Shown here: positions 7,979 through 47,118 of the stretch, one piece after another
Numbering within the stretch: position 1 is the first letter of the stretch
Layout of the letters: each line of letters begins with the position of its first letter
NCBI GenBank assembly: GCA_963281255.1
Contig: OY725506.1
Span: 2,461,001 to 2,525,000 of the forward strand
Source of the DNA: Aphrocallistes beatrix
Taxonomy: Eukaryota; Porifera; Hexactinellida; Sceptrulophora; Aphrocallistidae
DNA: 64,000 nt
Direction: 5' to 3'
The notes under the pieces: model-generated
Told to the model about the DNA's origin: nothing
Database searches by the model: none
Seen by the model: only the letters and a program-made list of their open reading frames with translations
Position numbers and translations under genes: made by a program

Positions 7979-8670
7979 TCTGTAACGAATTGATTGAAAA
8001 ACTGCCCAGCACAAAAGCTGATTTTTGGCATGTGGGAGTCTTTTGGCTATGGCTCCAGTAAGTTCTGAGCTCAGACGAAAATGTCGACTCATCATGGAAT
8101 TATGACGTCATTGTCACATTTTTAAAAGTCAAGCAACCGAGTTATTCGAGCATAACTCAGCCATTATAGGAGATAGAAGGCTGAAATTTTAATAGAATCT
8201 GTATACTAACATACCTCACATATGATACAACTATCATCAAAAAACGATAACTCATCACTTTGTTATAACGTCATCATTACGCATCAAAATTTTATAATTG
8301 ACAAATTTGGTGATTTTTCAAGTGATATCGATTTTAACACTAAGATAGACATATTTAAAGATGTTATCTCCCTTATAATTAACCAATGTGACCTCAGGCG
8401 ACCGAAGGGAGCCTCCGGCGGACAATTTGTGTCCGCCGGAGGCGCCCTTTGGGCGCCTGTGGTCACCATTGATAAATTATATGGGAGATAACATCTCTAA
8501 ATACGTCTGTCATAGTGCTATAATCGATATCGTCGAAAAATCATCAAATTTGTCAATTTTTAAAATTTTGATGCGTTATGATAACGTCATAACAGAGTGA
8601 TGAGTCATCATTTTTTGATAATAGTTGGGTCATACTTGAGGTAAATTAATATGCATAACTCTAGAAATTT
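7979..8670. mobile_element. Two Helitron-like family A copies joined tail to tail
   Basis: A plus-strand copy (7979 to about 8435, starting at CTGTAACGAATTGATTGAA and lacking its 5' tip) meets an inverted partial copy (about 8436-8670) at a perfect palindrome, centre GGCGGACAATTTGTGTCCGCC. Both copies have lost the final hairpin and the GCGCGCTTG end. The arrangement suggests inversion or tail-to-tail joining through the 3' hairpin. Confidence 0.65.
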
Positions 8671-24855: not shown

Positions 24856-25468
24856 TCTTATATATTAAAACTCTAGGATTTTTTTGTTTGCCCGAATTGA
24901 TTGAAGAATTGGAAAGTCGTAGAGATACGAAAATTGGTATGTAGGTGTGAAATGATGAATCTAGGATTAAGTTCTAAGATCTAAGCGAAATTTTCACACC
25001 TCGCCGAGATAGGTGACAAAATGTGCTGACCAATCAACTTCGATTATTTACTATAATGCAAATACATTGGAATAAAATAGTAGTGACTTATGCATACAAT
25101 CAAAAGAACTATTTGTGATTGAAATTCATTGGTTTATGTGAGAACCAATCAATTATCAGCCTTTATAATGCCATTCACACGATTCTATTTCATATAAATG
25201 ATTGAATACTGCTATTTTGAGTCTATAATTTGATTGTTAGCAACAATTAAAGTGTGTTATATGCTACGATCAATCAATTCGATCATAAAATAACTTTTAA
25301 CGACATAGACTGGAATTGATTATTTAAGTATAATAATCTTTAGCAATGTGAACTTTGTATATTCAAATTGAGCTTACATTCAGGATTAGTTGACTTAATA
25401 CGAAGTAGATTATATTTATCACGAAACAAAATTTATGCTACAGTTCTGATTTCATTAATGTAACCGTA

Positions 25469-25510
25469 GACAAATGACAATCCAGCGCGCGCGCTGGATT
25501 GTCATTTGTC
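25469..25510. repeat. Perfect 42-bp palindrome
   Basis: GACAAATGACAATCCAGCGCG is followed immediately by its exact reverse complement. The left half is host (family B) sequence, as shown by the copy at 46980. The right half is an inverted duplicate made at the insertion point of the gene-carrying insert. Confidence 0.95.
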
Positions 25511-25531
25511 TTTTGTCCACTTTTGTCATTT

Positions 25532-26044
25532 GTCCACTTTAAATCGTAAAAAATCACGAAAAAATTACGTTAAGATTATCTCAGTATTTACAAACATTTT
25601 GGTATTTTTCAGCTCCACCGGATCAAAGTAAGACCTTGAAAAATTTAATATTTCATTTTCACATATAAATGTGGTGTATATTGTGTTAAAATCCACTTCA
25701 TCTGTTATAACTTCCATTCTCCATTAATAAAAGTTCTGAAAATTAGCTACAAATTCTAAATTAATAATACTTGTATCGAAAACGCCTAAAGTTATAATCT
25801 AGCCAACTAATTCTCGAATTATTGCGTCATCATGACAGTACAAAATTTCATTATAGCTCAGGCAATATTCATTATAAATCAATGAAACTTAAACACTAGA
25901 TCTATCTTACCCTTTTCTGCCAGATTGTCTCAAAATCTCGTCAAAATGCAAATTCATCATTAGATTATGACGTCTTAATTGTGTATAAAAAGTGGAAATT
26001 TTACCAATTCAATTTTTACAATTTTTACAATTTTTATCATTTTC
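25532..26044 (+). repeat. Left inverted arm of the gene-carrying insert
   Basis: It pairs with 28931-29452 over its whole length, for example GTATTTTTCAGCTCCACCGG here against CCGCTGGAGCTGAAAAATAC there. Differences are scattered substitutions and one indel of about 20 bp near 25855. Confidence 0.9.
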
Positions 26045-26417
26045 CGAGGCAAAAAGTGTCGATGGCAAGTACACGGCTACTGCAAAGTTGTTTTGGGTAT
26101 GCGCTATACCGATCTTTAGCGATCTAGAAAACGATGCGCGCTCCTATACACTACCCGACATTGTCTATAATGACATACTTTGAGATTGTATGAGCAAACG
26201 ACATTGCCCTCAATTGAGTTGGAATTGATTTGTGCTACGACATTCACCAGACTGAAATATTATTTATTAGAATATCTGTTTAGTGAAAATATCAATCTAT
26301 TGAGAAAATGTTTATATTGATAATATGAATATAATGAGAATATTAGTACATAGAATTCTACTACACTATTTCAACCGAAACCTTCCGCTATGATTACACC
26401 AATATTTGTTTATCTCG

Positions 26418-28571
26418 CTAGTCTTCGTCTGTACCATCGATCTCCTTCCAGAAACGAATTGCCCGTTTGGCTGACTCTCTAATGGGTCTAGCTGGTGCAT
26501 CAGCCTTTCTCTTATGGCCATCCTTCCTGGTGAAGTTGTATCGACCTAGTGCATCTACTGCAGTACTATGATGAGTGGTCTGTACCGCAGAGAAGTCATT
26601 GTGACATGACTCAATTTGCTCCTCTGTAAGGAGCTGTACCTTTCCTCGGTGTATAGAATACCAATCCATGAAGTGAGCGAGCAAGCAATGGATAAGAAGC
26701 GTTACTGTCAGTCCATTATCAAGCCACACTATCCTGAATTCGTAAAGGAGTCTTGCAACTTCTCCAATCTCTTCTCCAGCCCATGCAGCAGTTCGAAGTG
26801 AGTGCCATGCTCTGAGGACAAAAACGGAGCAATCCGAGAAGCCAGAGTCAATCCATAGAGATACAGCACCACTAGCACTTGAAACTGCTGAGGCGAGCCT
26901 AGTAACGTCCTTGCCAGCGAATGAGGGACACTTCATGTGCTCGGCTTTGAGTGTGCTGGTGCAGGTTGCGGTCAAAGCTTTCACTTGATAGTTGGTCTCC
27001 AGGAATACCAGAAGTTTGAGCTTTCTTGATTCCCATACATCCTTGCAGGTCGAGCCAAGTCGAGTCTCGCGTTGAAACAATTGCCGCAATATGCACATAG
27101 ATATGTGTAAAACAGGTATATGGAATATCTCTACAGGGTCATTTCCGAGGTCCAGAATAGGGTGATGTATCTGTCCATCAATGTGTCTTGCTCTGGCCGG
27201 CTTGGTTTTGAGTAATAAGGCTGCTTGATCTGCAGTCCTTGGAACGTTTCTGTTGTCCGGAGAGTAGATTTGGCTCTTGTTTACCCTCTTGCCAGTTGTG
27301 CAGCAGAACACACAAGCAGTCGTGGTGCAGCCAGTTAGCAATTGGGCGCACTTGAAGTCACATGCCACTGTTACATTATAATCGTCAAACATAGGGGACA
27401 GGTCATACATCATGCATGATAGTAGAGCTCGACTCTCACTAGCCTCTGAAATAGCGATGACGAATGGAATCTGTCTCTCTCCTTTGCCTTTGAAACTAAT
27501 GGCTTCTCCTTGGTGATTGATTATCACTTTTACAGATCCGCCGCCGCCATCAATTGACATTTTCAGACAGTCTCCAGACTTGTACTCTTGACTGACTAAT
27601 TCCCCACATATATCCCGAACAATTCCATATGTAGAATTTCGACTCTGCCTGTGTACTTCGCCAGTCTCAGCCATCCAAAACTTTGCCAATGTGTCAGTCG
27701 CTTCATGTAACAGATCATCAGCTTCTCCAAAGTTCTTTATGGCAAAGTGGGTCATATACTCAGCTCGTTCCGACACAATTGTTAGTCTTTTTGGGAGACG
27801 AACTGCAGAACCGATGAACCGATTCATGATAGTCATAAGACAGTCCATGGAGGAATTAGAGGTCGTGGTCACAAGCTGGAGCTGTCGAATGAAGGAAGTA
27901 GGAACTACAAGCTTTGTCCGCTTCTGGCTGGGGTTTGCTCGTTGGAAGGTAGTTGCCCTGCCATGATGACCTAATAGTTCAAAGGGTGCATCCTTGGGGA
28001 GACCTCGCGACTTACGAATGGCACTCAGCCCAGCTCGAACCAATTGATCGATTTGTCCAGCATCCTCAGCCTGAGCTATTAGGCCCTGTGTTAACTCCTG
28101 ACGAGTCTTCGCTGGTCGAAACGGAGTGATGAAAGAAAATCCTGGGGGTCTCCCTGCACCCTTTCTGTTTTTCTTCTTCCCCTTCCTCATCTTGAGCTTG
28201 TGGTTGTCACAATACCAGCATTTTTCTTCTGTGTGATCTGGCTTTGGCCACCTCCGCACTATACAGTAGTGTTCTATTCTTCTCTTGGCGAATTGCTTTT
28301 TCCAACTGTCCAGCTGAGCATTTGTATTAACGGTGAGAGTGATCTTGCAATTACCGCATATGGAAGAGGGACCAGTGAGATCTGAGTGCGAACCAGTTGG
28401 CCCTGCATATTCCTGGAATTCTTTATCCATCTTTAATGCCATACAATTTGTGATAGGGTACAGCACCACTTTGGACCATGAGACTCCACAACAGTAGCAG
28501 TACTCATTAAAGTGGGGACATACGAAAGGTATCACAGAGGAAGCAGGGGGTATAGATGAATTTATTATCAT
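26418..28571 (-). CDS. 717-aa transposase-like protein, family not named
   Basis: Uninterrupted from ATG. The N-terminus has Cys/His pairs that could bind zinc: CPHFNEYCYCC (18-28), CGNC (72-75) and CWYCDNH (118-124). A Lys-rich stretch follows, then an AT-hook-like GAGRPPG (138-144). The central part has SIDGGGGSVK with Asp341, then VACDFK with Asp405 and a CVFCC knuckle (420-424). Near the C-terminus are acidic residues in LLTEEQIESCHNDFS (647-661) and a basic tail. The order Asp, Asp, CxxC, late Glu resembles RNase H-fold transposases with an inserted zinc-binding domain, such as RAG1/Transib. I also recall DGGGG..K and D.K...L.G...C.FC patterns in uncharacterised animal proteins. The catalytic assignment is inference. 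Confidence 0.75.
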   Translation of the reverse strand: MIINSSIPPASSVIPFVCPHFNEYCYCCGVSWSKVVLYPITNCMALKMDKEFQEYAGPTGSHSDLTGPSSICGNCKITLTVNTNAQLDSWKKQFAKRRIEHYCIVRRWPKPDHTEEKCWYCDNHKLKMRKGKKKNRKGAGRPPGFSFITPFRPAKTRQELTQGLIAQAEDAGQIDQLVRAGLSAIRKSRGLPKDAPFELLGHHGRATTFQRANPSQKRTKLVVPTSFIRQLQLVTTTSNSSMDCLMTIMNRFIGSAVRLPKRLTIVSERAEYMTHFAIKNFGEADDLLHEATDTLAKFWMAETGEVHRQSRNSTYGIVRDICGELVSQEYKSGDCLKMSIDGGGGSVKVIINHQGEAISFKGKGERQIPFVIAISEASESRALLSCMMYDLSPMFDDYNVTVACDFKCAQLLTGCTTTACVFCCTTGKRVNKSQIYSPDNRNVPRTADQAALLLKTKPARARHIDGQIHHPILDLGNDPVEIFHIPVLHISMCILRQLFQRETRLGSTCKDVWESRKLKLLVFLETNYQVKALTATCTSTLKAEHMKCPSFAGKDVTRLASAVSSASGAVSLWIDSGFSDCSVFVLRAWHSLRTAAWAGEEIGEVARLLYEFRIVWLDNGLTVTLLIHCLLAHFMDWYSIHRGKVQLLTEEQIESCHNDFSAVQTTHHSTAVDALGRYNFTRKDGHKRKADAPARPIRESAKRAIRFWKEIDGTDED

Positions 28572-28591
28572 AATGAATAAACTGAAGGATA

Positions 28592-28637
28592 TCCTTACTA
28601 TTAAAAATCGATTAATATATATTTATTTATTTATTTG

Positions 28638-28698
<61 letters not shown>

Positions 28699-28860
28699 GT
28701 AACGAATTGATTGAAGAAACTGACAAGCGCAGAAAGCTGATTTTTGGCATGTGGGAGTCTTTTGGCTATGGCTCCACTAAGTTCTAACTTCAGACTAAGA
28801 AAATATCGACTCATCATGGAGTTGTGACGTCATTGTCACCTTTTACTTTTTCGAAATTTC
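28592..28860 (+). mobile_element. Helitron-like family A, 5' fragment with CTAT microsatellite
   Basis: The 5' end TCCTTACTATTAAAAATCG is followed by a run of CTAT units (about 28636-28698) in place of the usual TA run, then the body CTGTAACGAATTGATTGAAG up to about 28855. The rest is missing. It lies 20 bp upstream of the start codon of the 717-codon gene. Confidence 0.75.
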
Positions 28861-28930
28861 AAAATATTTCCATTTTTATTAGAATTACAATAAGAAATCA
28901 ATATGTGTATATTAATTAATGAGTTTGACT

Positions 28931-29452
28931 CGAAAATGATAAAAATTGTAAAAATTGAATTGGTAAAATTTCCACTTTTTATACACAATTATGACGTCAT
29001 AATCAATGATGAATTTGCATTTTGACGAGATTTTGAGACAATCTGGCAGAAAAGGGTAAGATAGATCTAGTGTTTAAGTTTCATTGATTTATGATGAATA
29101 TTGCCTGAGCTGTAATGAATTGAGTCATTGCTATGAAATTTTGTACTGTCATGATGACGTAATAATTCGAGAATTAGTTGGCTAGATTATAACTTTAGGT
29201 GTGTTCGATCCAAGTATTAGTAATTTAGAATTTGTAGCTAATTTTCAGAACTTTTATTAATGGAGAATGGAAGTTATAACAGATGAAGTGGATTTTAACA
29301 CAATATACACCACATTTATATGTGAAAATGAAATAATAAAATTTTCAAGGTCTTACTTTGATCCGCTGGAGCTGAAAAATACCGAAATGTTTGTAAATAC
29401 TGAGATAAGCTTAACGTAATTTTTTCGTGATTTTTTAAGATTTTAAGTGGAC
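28931..29452 (-). repeat. Right inverted arm of the gene-carrying insert
   Basis: Inverted partner of 25532-26044. It contains an extra stretch of about 20 bp near 29115-29135 (GAATTGAGTCATTGCTATGA). Confidence 0.9.
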
Positions 29453-29585
29453 GTGGGCCAGCGTACTTAGTATAAAACAAGAAAGCGAAATATTGTTTCT
29501 CCAATATTCCCAAGCGCCCACTGGGTAAATCTGCAGACACGCAGTGTCTGCAAGCCGCGCAGCGCAAGCAAGCGAAGCGCGCTTG

Positions 29586-30482: not shown

Positions 30483-33397
30483 CAGGGGCGTCGGAAGCTC
30501 GTATGTCATGGGGGGATTAAAGAATAATAACATTATGAGATTCATTAACTTTAATTATTCATTGAGAATTTTGTATTTAAGAGCTAGGGAATTTGCCAAA
30601 CTTCCTTTCGCGGCGTTCATTACTTATGAACGCTCTTGCTATTTTCAGACACTCTGTTTCCCCAGATTTTTCCCTCTCGATTGCGAGAATGGACAGTTGG
30701 GTCATTCTTGCTTGTGTCATTGTCGATCTGAGCCATGTTTTAAGCCGACGAAGTACACTAAAGCTTCGTTCGGCACTCGCTCCAGAGACTCCAACTACCA
30801 ATAGAATTGTCACTAGCCGTGTAATATTAGGTAGCATATCTCTCACCTCTTTAGTCAATGACTTGTACATTGAAATAAAGCATGTAATCGACGTCACCGG
30901 TGACTTTTCTGACTTTACTAATCGCTTTAACATCTGAAGTTCGAATTGCAAATCTTCGACTGAAGATAAGTCATTCTTGTAAAAGGTGTACACAGATGAT
31001 ATCAAGCTATCTTTATTACCTTCTGTATTTATCACTGACAGGAAAAGCTGTTCAATATTACCTATCATACCCAAGTTAGTTTTATCGAAGGTATGTTTCA
31101 ATTTTTCAACCAACACATCTAAGAACTCTATAAACTTTGCTCTCCAATGTTCATAGGGGGATAACTGTAAGGCTGGAGTATAACTTGTTAGATTAATGTC
31201 GTATTCTATTATTGGATTCTTTTTGCGGATACGGTTTTCTTTTGGAGGATGAATATCTAATTCTTCAGAGATTTTCAAGCAATTTTTGTAAATCTCGTTG
31301 AAATCAGTGTCGTTCATTCTCATATCAGACAGCTCATCAATGACATAATTAGCTGCTTCTATAGCTCCAAAGATTGTGGCTTCTTTGGATTGTAGTGCCT
31401 TAGATAGCATTTCTACTCGTTTGAATATTGGAAGAAGCAAGTTAATTGAAAGTAGAGTCTCAAACTGATAAAGCCTAAGCTCGAAACCACGAGCAGTAGC
31501 TGCAGTTTTGGCATCTGCAGTCTCAGCTAAGTCATGCATCACTTGAAGCAGGACATCATATTCGTTTCGGGCTGCTGATAAAAGTTTACCACGAAGTACC
31601 CAACGAGTTGGACATGCTGGTCGTCGAACAGCAGAGTTTAGTTCGTCATCTGGATGAAGCTCACTGTGCAATTTCTTCACCAAATCAAATCTTTTACGGC
31701 TGTCACGTATAAAATTCGATTGAGAATTCAAAAATTGCATCAAATCACAACTCCAACGACTGCTTTCGATAGTATGTTGCAGATCTAAATTTAGACCGTG
31801 GTTTTTGCAATACACAAAAACAGCTTCTGGAACAATTTTCTGGATTTCTGCTCTCACGCCTTTATGAATTCCTATCATATTCGCTGCTCCATCATATATT
31901 TGACCGCGACAGTATGAAATATCAATATTAAGCCTTAGAAGTACATCTTTAATGGTATCTGCAATCTTCTCTCCAGTAGTTGAAACCATTGTGACTAAAC
32001 CCAGAAAGTATTCGTTTACAGTGAAATCTGGAGCCACGCTTCTAAGAATCACTGACAACTGTTCCTGTCCTGTAATATCTGTTGTTCCATCAGCACAAAT
32101 CATAAAGTACTTGAAATTTCTTAATTCTTCAGAAATTCGTCGTTGAACATCATGAGCTAATAGCTGGATAATCTCATTTTGAATATCAGGTGACATGTAT
32201 TCCAAACGGGTAGAAGAAAGACATTTGGAAAAACTAGTGCTATCAGTTGAGCGCAGTTTCATCAGCTTAATTAGTAAACCGGAGTCTGTATCATGGCCTC
32301 GAACTGGCAACGCACACTCACCCAGAAATTTCAGACTAGTTATTACTCCAACTAGGAAGCTCCGCCACTGTTCTTGCGAATTCAGCATGGCTGCATCCAA
32401 CTGAGTAGAGATAGTACCTTGCTTCGTGACATACAGCTGTACTTCTACTGCAACCTTGTGTTGCCGTGATTTCTTGTGGTCATGAAACTTTTCTATCGCT
32501 TTTTTCCAATTGCAAAATCCAATATTGCTATCAGTAAATGAAGGTTCAATTTTTAGATTATTAGGGAATTTTCGTTCTTGTAGTGTTTTGGGACATGGGT
32601 AACATATCACGATGTCGCGTTCCTGTACATAGTGCAAGAAATCAAAAGTTTCGAACCAATGTTTTTGGGGCTTTAAATTGATCAGATGATTTTTCCCAAA
32701 GGTTCTGAAGGGTAAACGATTGCAGTCTAGAGGGACATAGCGTTCTGTGAGACTTAATGAATTCACTAAGTCAGCTTCACCAATCACGATTTCATGTTCA
32801 TCTAACTCCACAGATTCGACATATGGTTCTATTGATTCTTCGAAACCAAGATGGGCCTCTTGATCCGTATTATTAGTGAATCCACCTTGAGATTGACTGG
32901 CCTTCGGTATTTTGCACATCTCTACAAGCGATATTTGTCGATGTCTCTTACGATTATTACTACCAGATGGACAGGTCATGTTTCTTTATTGTAGTTTTTA
33001 GAAATCGTCGAAATTAATTAAGCACAGAAACAACAAATCAATGATAAAATCGTAATCTGAGTTAATTTATATTAAGTTGAATCATTACTAGTGTCTCAGT
33101 AATAGTGTACTTTTTCATCACAGCAGATATGAAACAAATGGAAAACAATTTTATAAGTTATCAGTTATGTATACACACATAACAAGGTTTCAATCATCAA
33201 CATATTCTATGATTTAAAGTATCAGGCTTCAAACCAGTTTTCAAATTGCAGACTGGTGTATGAGGTTTCCTATTCAAGCTAAGAAATTTGAAATTTGTTA
33301 CTATCAAATCGCGATTACGCGTGGGGGGATAATCCCCCCTCGTTTAAATTATGGGGGGGATGAATCACCCCCATCCCCCCCGCTTCCGACGCCCCTG
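30483..33397 (-). mobile_element. Apparently complete hAT transposon
   Basis: Perfect 16-bp terminal inverted repeats CAGGGGCGTCGGAAGC (30483-30498) and complement (33382-33397). Perfect 8-bp target duplication ACTGTATA (30475-30482 and 33398-33405). One uninterrupted 800-codon transposase on the minus strand fills most of the interior. Its ends and coding frame show no decay, so it is recent and may be active. Confidence 0.95.
30577..32979 (-). CDS. hAT transposase (ZMYM1-like group)
   Basis: Intact 800-residue enzyme that would cut and paste the surrounding element. Basic N-terminus (KRHRQ), a TTF-type zinc-binding region around VICYPCPKTLQERKFPNN and HDHKKSRQHKVAV (120-180), then a DUF4371-like segment. 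The RNase H fold carries Asp297 in MICADGTTDITGQEQLSV and Asp363 in GQIYDGAANMIGIHKGVR. The CxxH-type position is seen in VYCKNHGLNLDLQH. The C-terminal dimerisation domain has the catalytic Glu737 in SGASAERSFSVLRRLKTWLR. The length and motif order are those of full-length family members. The start ATG lies 418 bp inside the right terminal repeat. Confidence 0.93.
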   Translation of the reverse strand: MTCPSGSNNRKRHRQISLVEMCKIPKASQSQGGFTNNTDQEAHLGFEESIEPYVESVELDEHEIVIGEADLVNSLSLTERYVPLDCNRLPFRTFGKNHLINLKPQKHWFETFDFLHYVQERDIVICYPCPKTLQERKFPNNLKIEPSFTDSNIGFCNWKKAIEKFHDHKKSRQHKVAVEVQLYVTKQGTISTQLDAAMLNSQEQWRSFLVGVITSLKFLGECALPVRGHDTDSGLLIKLMKLRSTDSTSFSKCLSSTRLEYMSPDIQNEIIQLLAHDVQRRISEELRNFKYFMICADGTTDITGQEQLSVILRSVAPDFTVNEYFLGLVTMVSTTGEKIADTIKDVLLRLNIDISYCRGQIYDGAANMIGIHKGVRAEIQKIVPEAVFVYCKNHGLNLDLQHTIESSRWSCDLMQFLNSQSNFIRDSRKRFDLVKKLHSELHPDDELNSAVRRPACPTRWVLRGKLLSAARNEYDVLLQVMHDLAETADAKTAATARGFELRLYQFETLLSINLLLPIFKRVEMLSKALQSKEATIFGAIEAANYVIDELSDMRMNDTDFNEIYKNCLKISEELDIHPPKENRIRKKNPIIEYDINLTSYTPALQLSPYEHWRAKFIEFLDVLVEKLKHTFDKTNLGMIGNIEQLFLSVINTEGNKDSLISSVYTFYKNDLSSVEDLQFELQMLKRLVKSEKSPVTSITCFISMYKSLTKEVRDMLPNITRLVTILLVVGVSGASAERSFSVLRRLKTWLRSTMTQARMTQLSILAIEREKSGETECLKIARAFISNERRERKFGKFPSS

Positions 33398-43896: not shown

Positions 43897-43967
43897 TCTT
43901 ATATATTAAAACGCTAGGATTTTATGTTTGTTTGTCCGAATTGATCGAAGAATTGTCAAGTCGTAGA

Positions 43968-44783
43968 CAGGGTTCCCTCTAAGGATCCAAAAATTTCGGT
44001 CCGACCGGCTGGCGCCGGCAGAGCATCGGCCACACCGTTTTCAAAACAAATTATATCGGCCGACAAATGTAGGGGCGTAACTAGGTTCAGCCCCAATGTA
44101 CGTCATTTGATCAATGGCATGTCTGGAGGGGCTCTTGTTTAAGGAATCGACTTTTTCATATTTTTTACTTTTATTTACATTTTACACTACTTTTCTCGTT
44201 GGTTAGTTATTTTCCCTTCTTTACCTCTCTCCTCTTTATCCTATTCCATATGCCTACTGCTGCCGAGCATATTCGTAAGGGTGCGTATGTTGATTGGTTA
44301 GAGGTCGTCGACGGCAGATTCCGTTGCAAGTTGTGTGTGGCACGTGGTTGTAGAAGTTCTGTCTGGTTCAAGTGGATCTCTTTCTTGGTGATGAGTTTCT
44401 CATCACCAAGAAAGAGATGCGTGATGCTCAGAGAGAACTAGAGGAGATTGAGAGGGGCATGCCTGCCATTTTGGAGGCAAGAATGCGCAAACGCCCCCGT
44501 GAAAGTGAATCGGAGGATTCATCGAATGAGTCAGACTTAGAGACCAGCGACTAGGGATACTCAGTTGTACTACTTCCCACACATACACAATGTTTCCTTT
44601 ATACCTTAATTTTTGTTAACATTTTTCCTTAATACATTTTTCTCAACCAAATTTGTGAAAGAAACATGTTTTCATGGTCAAAGTAAAAAAAAATATCGGC
44701 CTGCCATCGGCCGAAATCCAGTCAAAATCGGCCGGCCGTCCACCAAATTACCAAAATATCGGCCGGCCTTAGAGGGAACACTG
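43968..44783. mobile_element. Non-autonomous hAT element, CAGNGTTCCCTCTAAGG ends
   Basis: Ends CAGGGTTCCCTCTAAGG and CCTTAGAGGGAACACTG differ at one base. A perfect 8-bp duplication GTCGTAGA lies at 43960-43967 and 44784-44791. The terminal regions contain CGGCCGGC-type units. Inside is a BED-finger-like fragment (YVDWLEVVDGRFRCKLC) on the plus strand and, after a perfect hairpin, an open frame for an acidic C-terminal tail (RPRESESEDSSNESD). Confidence 0.9.
44376..44418. repeat. Perfect 20-bp stem hairpin with 3-nt loop
   Basis: ATCTCTTTCTTGGTGATGAG, TTT, then the exact complement. It separates the two coding fragments of the hAT element and looks like an inversion or foldback deletion scar. 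Confidence 0.9.
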
Positions 44784-45337
44784 GTCGTAGAGATACGAAA
44801 ATTGGCATGTAGGTGTCAAATGATGAATCTAGGATTAAGTTCGAAGATCTAAGCGAAATGTTTACACCTCGCCGAGATAGGTGACAAAATGTACTGACCA
44901 ATCAAACTAGATTATTTTATAATGCAAATACATTGGAATAAAATAGTAGTGAATTATGCACACAATCAAAATAACTATTTGTGATTGAAATTCATTGGTT
45001 TATGTGAGAACCAATCAATTATCAGCCTTTTATAATGTCATTCACACGATTCTATTTCTTATAAATGATTGAAACTGCTATTTTGAATCTATAATTTGAT
45101 TGTTAACAACAATTAAAGTGTGTTATATGCTACGATCAATCAATTCGATCATAAAATAACTTTTAACGACATGGACTGGAATTGATTATTCAAGTATAAT
45201 AATCTTTAGCAATGTGAACTTTGTGTATTCAAATTGAGCTTACACTTAGGATTAGTTGACTTAATACGAAGTAAATTATATTTATCACGAAACAAAATTT
45301 CTGCTACAGTTCTGATTTCAGTAATGTAACCGTAGAC

Positions 45338-46978
<1,641 letters not shown>

Positions 46979-47118
46979 CCGTAGACAAATGACAATCCAG
47001 CGTACTTATAAAACAAGAAAGCGACGTATTGTTCAAATATCCCCAAGCCCCCACTGGGTAAATCTGCGGACTCGCAGTGTCTGCAAGCCGCGCAGCGCAA
47101 GCAAGCGAAGCGCGCTCG

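What the first reader, a model, noticed from the sequence alone, without database searches (positions are those of the whole stretch)
25488..29457. Intact 717-codon transposase-like gene between long inverted arms, a candidate undescribed DNA transposon
A 3.97-kb insert has two inverted arms of about 515 bp, roughly 95% identical by eye, and one uninterrupted gene. A related Helitron-like copy at 43897-47118 shows the uninterrupted target. The protein has zinc-binding pairs at the N-terminus, Asp341 in SIDGGGGSVK, Asp405 in VACDFK, a CxxC knuckle at 420-423 and a late acidic cluster, an order like RAG1/Transib-type RNase H transposases. Its ends match none of the superfamilies I know. High arm identity and an open frame suggest recent activity.
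Basis: partly seen in the sequence, partly recalled or inferred. Interest (0 to 1): 0.82.

Follow-up and report, generated by a model that had tools for sequence, protein, structure and literature searches.

The report
Chapaev-like transposon making six-base duplications
A family of recently active jumping genes whose cutting enzyme looks like a distant cousin of the RAG1 immune recombinase, and which duplicates six bases of host DNA on landing where its described relatives duplicate two to five.

Summary
The insert is real: one of at least eight copies of a DNA transposon (F1) in an unnamed 100.5-Mb genome. Six near-complete copies are 99.5-99.9% identical. Complete copies have 5'-CAC..GTG-3' ends; the window copy has lost its left CAC. 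Arms are about 520 bp. Five of six copies with two readable ends show exact 6-bp target duplications (one shows 5); the window copy's target, CCAGCG, exists empty at 46997-47002. A relative at about 28% protein identity (F2) also makes 6-bp duplications (3 of 3 read). All nine 6-bp duplications have CG at one end. The protein matches nothing in Pfam, but profile comparison ties it to a large in-genome family with CAC ends and 4-bp duplications (E 3.9e-18) and, more weakly, to in-genome Transib (P 3.2e-5; 0 of 100 permuted controls as good). Its motif order (D, D, C(2)C, LH, H(4)H, E) is that of the Chapaev-Transib-RAG1 group. I read it as a Chapaev-like lineage with an unusual 6-bp, CpG-associated insertion: a new variant of a known kind.

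The parts
25482..25487 (.). left target-site duplication CCAGCG
   Evidence: read directly; empty site at 46997-47002
25488..25531 (.). 44-bp filler between target duplication and element: inverted copy of the flank plus a partial second copy of the element tip
   Evidence: perfect palindrome 25468-25511; tandem unit TTTGTCATTTGTCCACT
25532..26044 (+). left terminal inverted repeat; terminal CAC missing in this copy
26418..28571 (-). intact transposase gene, 717 codons, no intron needed
   Evidence: residues 1-717 match without a stop in three other copies
28203..28520 (-). N-terminal cysteine-rich zinc-finger-like region (C18, C25, C28, C72, C75, C103, C118, C121)
   Evidence: cysteines shared with F2; similar CxxC pairs in F4/F5; zinc binding inferred
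27549..27551 (-). D341, proposed first catalytic Asp
   Evidence: invariant in seven aligned proteins, F1 included; aligned with Asp of Transib DGLDGSG
27357..27359 (-). D405, proposed second catalytic Asp
   Evidence: aligned with Transib D389, Lys two residues on in all; Asn in the F3 copy P0001
27303..27314 (-). C(2)C motif C420-C423
   Evidence: invariant in seven aligned proteins, F1 included
27105..27107 (-). H489 of the LH motif
   Evidence: H489 invariant in seven aligned proteins, F1 included
26673..26690 (-). H(4)H motif H628-H633
   Evidence: conserved in F2 and in the two F5 proteins; aligned with Transib LHRVLAH
26619..26624 (-). E650/E651, proposed catalytic Glu
   Evidence: aligned with Transib SEE; 245/246 residues after D405
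28932..29455 (-). right terminal inverted repeat ending AAGTGGACGTG
29456..29457 (.). 2-bp filler GG
29458..29463 (.). right target-site duplication CCAGCG
46997..47002 (.). uninterrupted target CCAGCG in a related repeat

Best explanation
It is an autonomous cut-and-paste DNA transposon of a divergent Chapaev-like lineage within the CMC/Transib-RAG1 group of DDE transposases. Inferred mechanism: the N-terminal cysteine-rich domain and the pre-catalytic region bind the roughly 520-bp inverted ends; the RNase H-type core (D341, D405, E650 or E651, with zinc held by C(2)C and H(4)H) cuts at the 5'-CAC tips; the excised element is joined to target strands six bases apart, preferably at CGNNNR, giving 6-bp duplications. 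Shown here: multiple near-identical copies, CAC/GTG ends, 6-bp duplications, an empty target, an open frame, motif order and remote homology to Transib. Inferred: catalysis, fold, zinc binding, end binding and target choice by the enzyme.
For: Copies and ends. Target duplications: F1 6 bp in 5 of 6 copies with CAC and GTG both present, 5 bp in the sixth, plus the window copy behind fillers; F2 3 of 3 loci read, a fourth unreadable. CG at one end of 9 of 9 six-bp duplications, against 4.96% of window hexamers; the narrower CGNNNR or its complement also fits 9 of 9, against 2.37% (pattern chosen after seeing the data). Homology: F1-F3 profile against F4/F5, 99.0% probability, E 3.9e-18, 534 columns. 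Eight F1-F5 rows against seven in-genome Transib rows: probability 72.6%, P 3.2e-5, 394 columns with D, D, C(2)C, LH, H(4)H and E in register; 0 of 100 column-permuted profiles reach score 50.4 (maximum 25.1); reversed 15.9; hAT 15.6. In each of three smaller sets 0 of 100 permutations reach the real score. The bridge is truly Transib: phmmer of P0004 to solved transposase 6pqn at E 1.6e-23 and to RAG1 chains; P0005 passes the Pfam RAG1 cut-off, 26.9 bits. PF06918, described as Chapaev transposase (PMC3985635, passages read), gives one hit in the genome, in an F4 locus (22.2 bits, E 0.0043).
Against: No Pfam hit for the window protein at E up to 10 and no convincing PDB sequence relative: single sequence, two hits at E 0.29 and 2.3 to unrelated proteins; profile, none. 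The PF06918 hit is below its 25-bit cut-off, on F4 and not on F1, and the F4 protein P0007 itself has no Pfam hit. Smaller profile comparisons with Transib are only marginal (P 0.011, 0.0049 and 0.039; 0.0097, 0.019 and 0.061), and BLASTP finds one short match (E 0.003) or nothing below E 2. Six-bp duplications lie outside the 3-4 bp given for Chapaev and the 2-5 bp given for CMCT. The structure model is useless (pLDDT 34).
Confidence: 0.7

Rival explanations
1. It belongs to a separate, undescribed superfamily of the CMC/Transib group, sister to Chapaev rather than inside it, defined by 6-bp CpG-directed insertion.
For: 6-bp duplications in two lineages about 28% identical; no Chapaev Pfam hit on F1.
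Against: Long profile match to F4/F5, where F5 has Chapaev-style CAC ends and 4-bp duplications.
Confidence: 0.25
2. It is an IS3EU or Dada element, two superfamilies described as making 6-bp (IS3EU) or 6-7-bp (Dada) duplications.
For: Duplication length only.
Against: The fungal IS3EU families in PMC12730594 end TAYGG..CCRTA (passages read). Dada elements with clear ends sit in small RNA genes, and Dada-U6 and Dada-U1 lack terminal inverted repeats (PMC3706591, passages read). F1 ends CAC..GTG, has long inverted repeats, and none of the 9 F1/F2 loci scanned shows an Rfam match at the gathering threshold. No IS3EU or Dada protein was available for comparison.
Confidence: 0.03
3. The gene is a host gene or domesticated transposase at a fixed locus.
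For: A long open frame.
Against: Dispersed 99.5-99.9% identical copies on different contigs with target duplications and an empty site.
Confidence: 0.02

Closest known systems
Chapaev superfamily (CMC group)
   Same: 5'-CAC/GTG-3' ends; D, D, C(2)C, LH, H(4)H, E order; cysteine-rich N-terminus; profile link through F4/F5
   Different: 6-bp instead of 3-4-bp duplications, with CG at one end in 9 of 9; no Pfam PF06918 match for F1 itself
Transib / RAG1
   Same: order and approximate spacing of D, D, C(2)C, H(4)H, E; CAC at the ends
   Different: in-genome Transib has CACAGTG ends and 5-bp duplications (2 of 2 read), as RAG-like transposons do (5 bp, PMC7204232, passages read); F1 has CACGTCC ends, about 520-bp arms and 6-bp duplications
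EnSpm/CACTA, Plavaka, ESTA, Lanisha (CMCT)
   Same: C(2)C and H(3-4)H layout as described in PMC12730594
IS3EU and Dada
   Same: 6-bp (Dada 6-7-bp) duplications
   Different: different ends; Dada also differs in lacking terminal inverted repeats (U6 and U1 types) and in its targets

Membership tests
[quoted passage not shown]
   six of the eight copies with mapped ends have both; the window copy lacks the left one and L016 the right one
Chapaev | 3-4-bp target duplication | tested here: not met
   6 bp in 5 of 6 F1 copies with both ends and in 3 of 3 F2 loci read; the related F5 does meet it, 4 bp in 7 of 10
Chapaev | C(2)C, LH and H(4)H motifs with DDE | tested here: met
   catalysis itself untested
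Chapaev | match to PF06918 (DUF1280) | tested here: inconclusive
   none for F1 nor for F4 protein P0007; one sub-threshold hit in the genome, in another F4 locus
Chapaev | grouping with Repbase Chapaev transposases in a tree | not testable with these tools
   Repbase sequences not held
Transib | 5-bp target duplication | tested here: not met
   6 bp in 5 of 6, 5 bp in one; in-genome Transib shows 5 bp in 2 of 2
Transib | RSS-heptamer-like ends | tested here: not met
   CACGTCC shares CAC, and little more, with CACAGTG
Transib | sequence match to Transib/RAG1 | tested here: inconclusive
   remote only; no PF12940 match for F1
CMCT clade | C(2)C and H(3-4)H between second D and E | tested here: met
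CMCT clade | 2-5-bp target duplication | tested here: not met
   6 bp in 5 of 6 F1 copies and 3 of 3 F2 loci read
IS3EU | TAYGG..CCRTA ends (fungal families of PMC12730594) | tested here: not met
   CAC..GTG ends
Dada | insertion in small RNA genes | tested here: not met
   no Rfam match at gathering threshold in 9 loci, 55,573 bases

The most novel reading that the evidence does not exclude
F1 and F2 found a distinct superfamily of RAG1-related transposases that joins ends six bases apart and reads CpG in the target. With F5 (4 bp) and Transib (5 bp) in the same genome, one enzyme fold would set the spacing of the two strand-transfer sites at 4, 5 or 6 bases.
Probability: 0.3. Interest if true: 0.65.

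Novelty: new variant of a known kind. Interest (0 to 1): 0.45.

Why it matters
Duplication length is treated as diagnostic of DNA-transposon superfamilies (stated so in PMC3706591, passages read). Here one homologous enzyme group in one genome yields 4 bp (F5) and 6 bp (F1, F2), alongside 5 bp in its Transib relatives. That makes it testable how a RAG1-type transposase sets the stagger and whether it reads CpG. It also adds a divergent, apparently recently active relative of the enzyme behind antibody gene rearrangement.

Tried and rejected
Single-sequence AlphaFold2 of the window protein: mean pLDDT 34, pTM 0.22, so no fold search was run. The second structure job was not used: the tool admits window proteins and loci from other tools, and the relatives came from the genome tools. 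Short block HMMs were weak: the H(4)H-E block scored 3.3 bits on F1 with 7 of 5000 shuffles as good and -0.4 on the F2 C-terminus (116 of 5000); the D-C(2)C block was not significant on F1 (1531 of 5000) and was 84 of 5000 on F2 and 87 of 5000 on F3; profile-profile comparison replaced them. I first took H484/H489 as the H(4)H motif; H484 is not conserved, and the conserved pair is H628/H633. Searches of viral contigs, species genomes and phage records found no relative; the plasmid and E. coli collections were not searched. Ends of F3 and F4 and the right end of the F2 copy L042 were not determined; of the F5-like loci only the ten pairs sharing one end pattern were read. In one search the row for the window copy (L009) is empty because its query file had not yet been written; one search made that comparison. 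The host was not identified. Two classification papers that I recalled are not held.
Full report
What is there. The 717-codon frame at 26418-28571 (-) sits between inverted arms 25532-26044 and 28932-29452. DNA and protein searches of the genome find seven further copies, on contigs C1 (two), C2, C10, C11 (two) and C14, and decayed pieces on C6 and C2 (counts are lower bounds). Six near-complete copies, the window's included, were aligned: the 15 pairs are 99.46-99.92% identical with gaps set aside. Four copies, the window's included, match residues 1-717 without a stop, one of them over 2130 instead of 2151 bases; one on C11 matches 1-702; the other three are shifted or broken. The tips of the two arms differ by the same substitutions in the six copies, apart from single changes in L013 and L014, so arm identity does not date the insertion but copy identity does. 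A TATC array upstream of the gene varies from 9 to 15 units among the six.

Ends and target duplications. Copies with both ends begin CACGTCCACT and end with its inverse; the older copy L015 has lost sequence just inside its right tip but keeps GTGGACGTG. Of eight copies whose ends were looked at, six have CAC and GTG: five carry exact 6-bp duplications (CGAATG, CGGTCA, CGCATG, CGACTG, CTAACG) and one, L010, carries 5 bp (CAAGC). In the window copy the target is CCAGCG on both sides, with a 44-bp filler on the left, a 2-bp filler on the right, and CAC lost on the left. The eighth copy, L016, has near-copies of the element tip outside its right end and cannot be read. A perfect 44-base palindrome (25468-25511) spans the left target and the start of the left filler. 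That is what fold-back or opened-hairpin repair would leave, but it is inference.

A second family with the same habit. A relative at about 28% protein identity (F2; loci L037, L038, L040 and L042) has its own long inverted ends starting CACGGGGG or CACGAGGG and 6-bp duplications in the three loci read: CGGTCA, TGATCG, CGGTCG. In L037 the reading frame breaks off just before the last catalytic motif and continues in another frame, by frameshift or intron. All nine 6-bp duplications of F1 and F2 have CG at one end, and all nine fit CGNNNR or its complement; in the window 4.96% and 2.37% of hexamers do. The narrower pattern was chosen after seeing the data.

What the protein is. F1 has no Pfam match at E up to 10 and no convincing PDB relative by sequence. 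Searches for relatives inside the genome gave a third lineage, F3, whose best copy P0001 has Asn in place of the second Asp, and a large group F4/F5 with 95 and 80 overlapping matches listed for two queries. The F1-F3 profile matches the F4/F5 profile at 99.0% probability and E 3.9e-18 over 534 columns, from the N-terminal cysteines to just past H(4)H. F5 is itself a transposon. In the copy examined its inverted ends align over 881 columns at 95.9%. Twenty matches to its tip form ten end pairs; exact 4-bp duplications flank seven of ten and three have none; one of the seven lies in a run of G and one has a degenerate right tip.

Link to Transib and RAG1. A Pfam RAG1 search of the genome, with 19 weak hits and none over the cut-off, led to another family (P0004, P0005). 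P0004 matches the solved Transib transposase 6pqn at E 1.6e-23 and RAG1 chains more weakly; P0005 passes the Pfam RAG1 cut-off as a whole protein. Two copies read have ends CACAGTG and 5-bp duplications CAAAT and GAAAA. Eight F1-F5 rows against seven such Transib rows gave hhalign probability 72.6% and P 3.2e-5 over 394 columns, with D341, D405, C420/C423, H489, H628/H633 and E650/E651 falling on the Transib counterparts. None of 100 column-permuted profiles, the reversed profile or the neighbouring hAT protein came near. With less input the signal falls: P 0.011 for F1-F3, 0.0049 for F4/F5 and 0.039 for F1 alone, each still above all 100 permutations. Earlier comparisons of two to four sequences on the F side with two Transib sequences gave P 0.0097 to 0.061. 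So the link is remote; it rests on the whole set and on motif register.

Which superfamily. Passages read in PMC4079192 give Chapaev hallmarks as generally 3-4-bp duplications, invariable CAC and GTG ends, and C(2)C, LH and H(4)H motifs. One section and passages read in PMC12730594 describe a CMCT clade with CA..TG ends in most cases and 2-5-bp duplications. PMC3985635 (passages) equates PF06918 with Chapaev transposase, and the one PF06918 hit in this genome falls in an F4 locus, below the cut-off; the F4 protein P0007 has no Pfam hit. PMC4411706 (passages) groups Chapaev with Transib and describes a zinc-finger domain shared by Chapaev and RAG1; F1 has a cysteine-rich N-terminus, but its identity with that domain was not tested. 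F5 meets the Chapaev hallmarks tested. F1 meets the ends and motifs but not the duplication length. I therefore call F1 Chapaev-like, not a tested member of Chapaev.

Mechanism. Shown: mobility in the recent past, ends, duplications, an empty site, an open frame, and motif order. Inferred: the enzyme binds the long arms, cuts at CAC, and joins to target strands six bases apart at CpG-containing sites, with D341, D405 and E650 or E651 holding metal and C(2)C plus H(4)H holding zinc, as in RAG1 (RAG1 residue roles recalled). The single-sequence model (pLDDT 34) neither supports nor refutes this.

Print. Searches of the held open library returned no paper that I recognised as describing a CMC/Chapaev lineage with 6-bp duplications. 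Most listed papers were seen only as titles and starts of abstracts; passages were read in PMC12730594, PMC7204232, PMC3985635, PMC4411706, PMC4079192 and PMC3706591. Repbase itself was not searchable, so a database-only description is possible.

Noticed in passing
L052-L055, L058, L059 (contigs C2, C15, C17, C10): Transib elements with long open frames; two copies read have ends CACAGTGGTTTA, identical in the first seven bases to the consensus V(D)J heptamer (recalled), and 5-bp duplications CAAAT and GAAAA.
   Followed up: partly
L062-L064 (C8:1011137-1015087) and nine further end pairs: F5, a Chapaev-like family with long inverted ends (about 880 bp in the copy examined) and 4-bp duplications in 7 of 10 end pairs; the related group lists 80-95 matches in the genome, and the four proteins scanned have no convincing Pfam match.
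   Followed up: partly
window 25468-25531: Perfect 44-base palindrome and partial second element tip at the left junction, suggesting fold-back or template-switch repair during insertion.
   Followed up: partly
L016, right end near 8018: Several near-copies of the element tip (TTTTAAGTGGACTA) outside the right end of another F1 copy, a second aberrant junction.
   Followed up: no
window 30577-32979 (-): Open 800-codon hAT-type transposase gene (PF14291, PF05699) next to the insert.
   Followed up: partly
L039 (C1:1955475-1956356) and loci on C15, C3, C10, C2: F3, a third lineage with mostly broken copies; its best copy carries Asn at the second catalytic position.
   Followed up: partly
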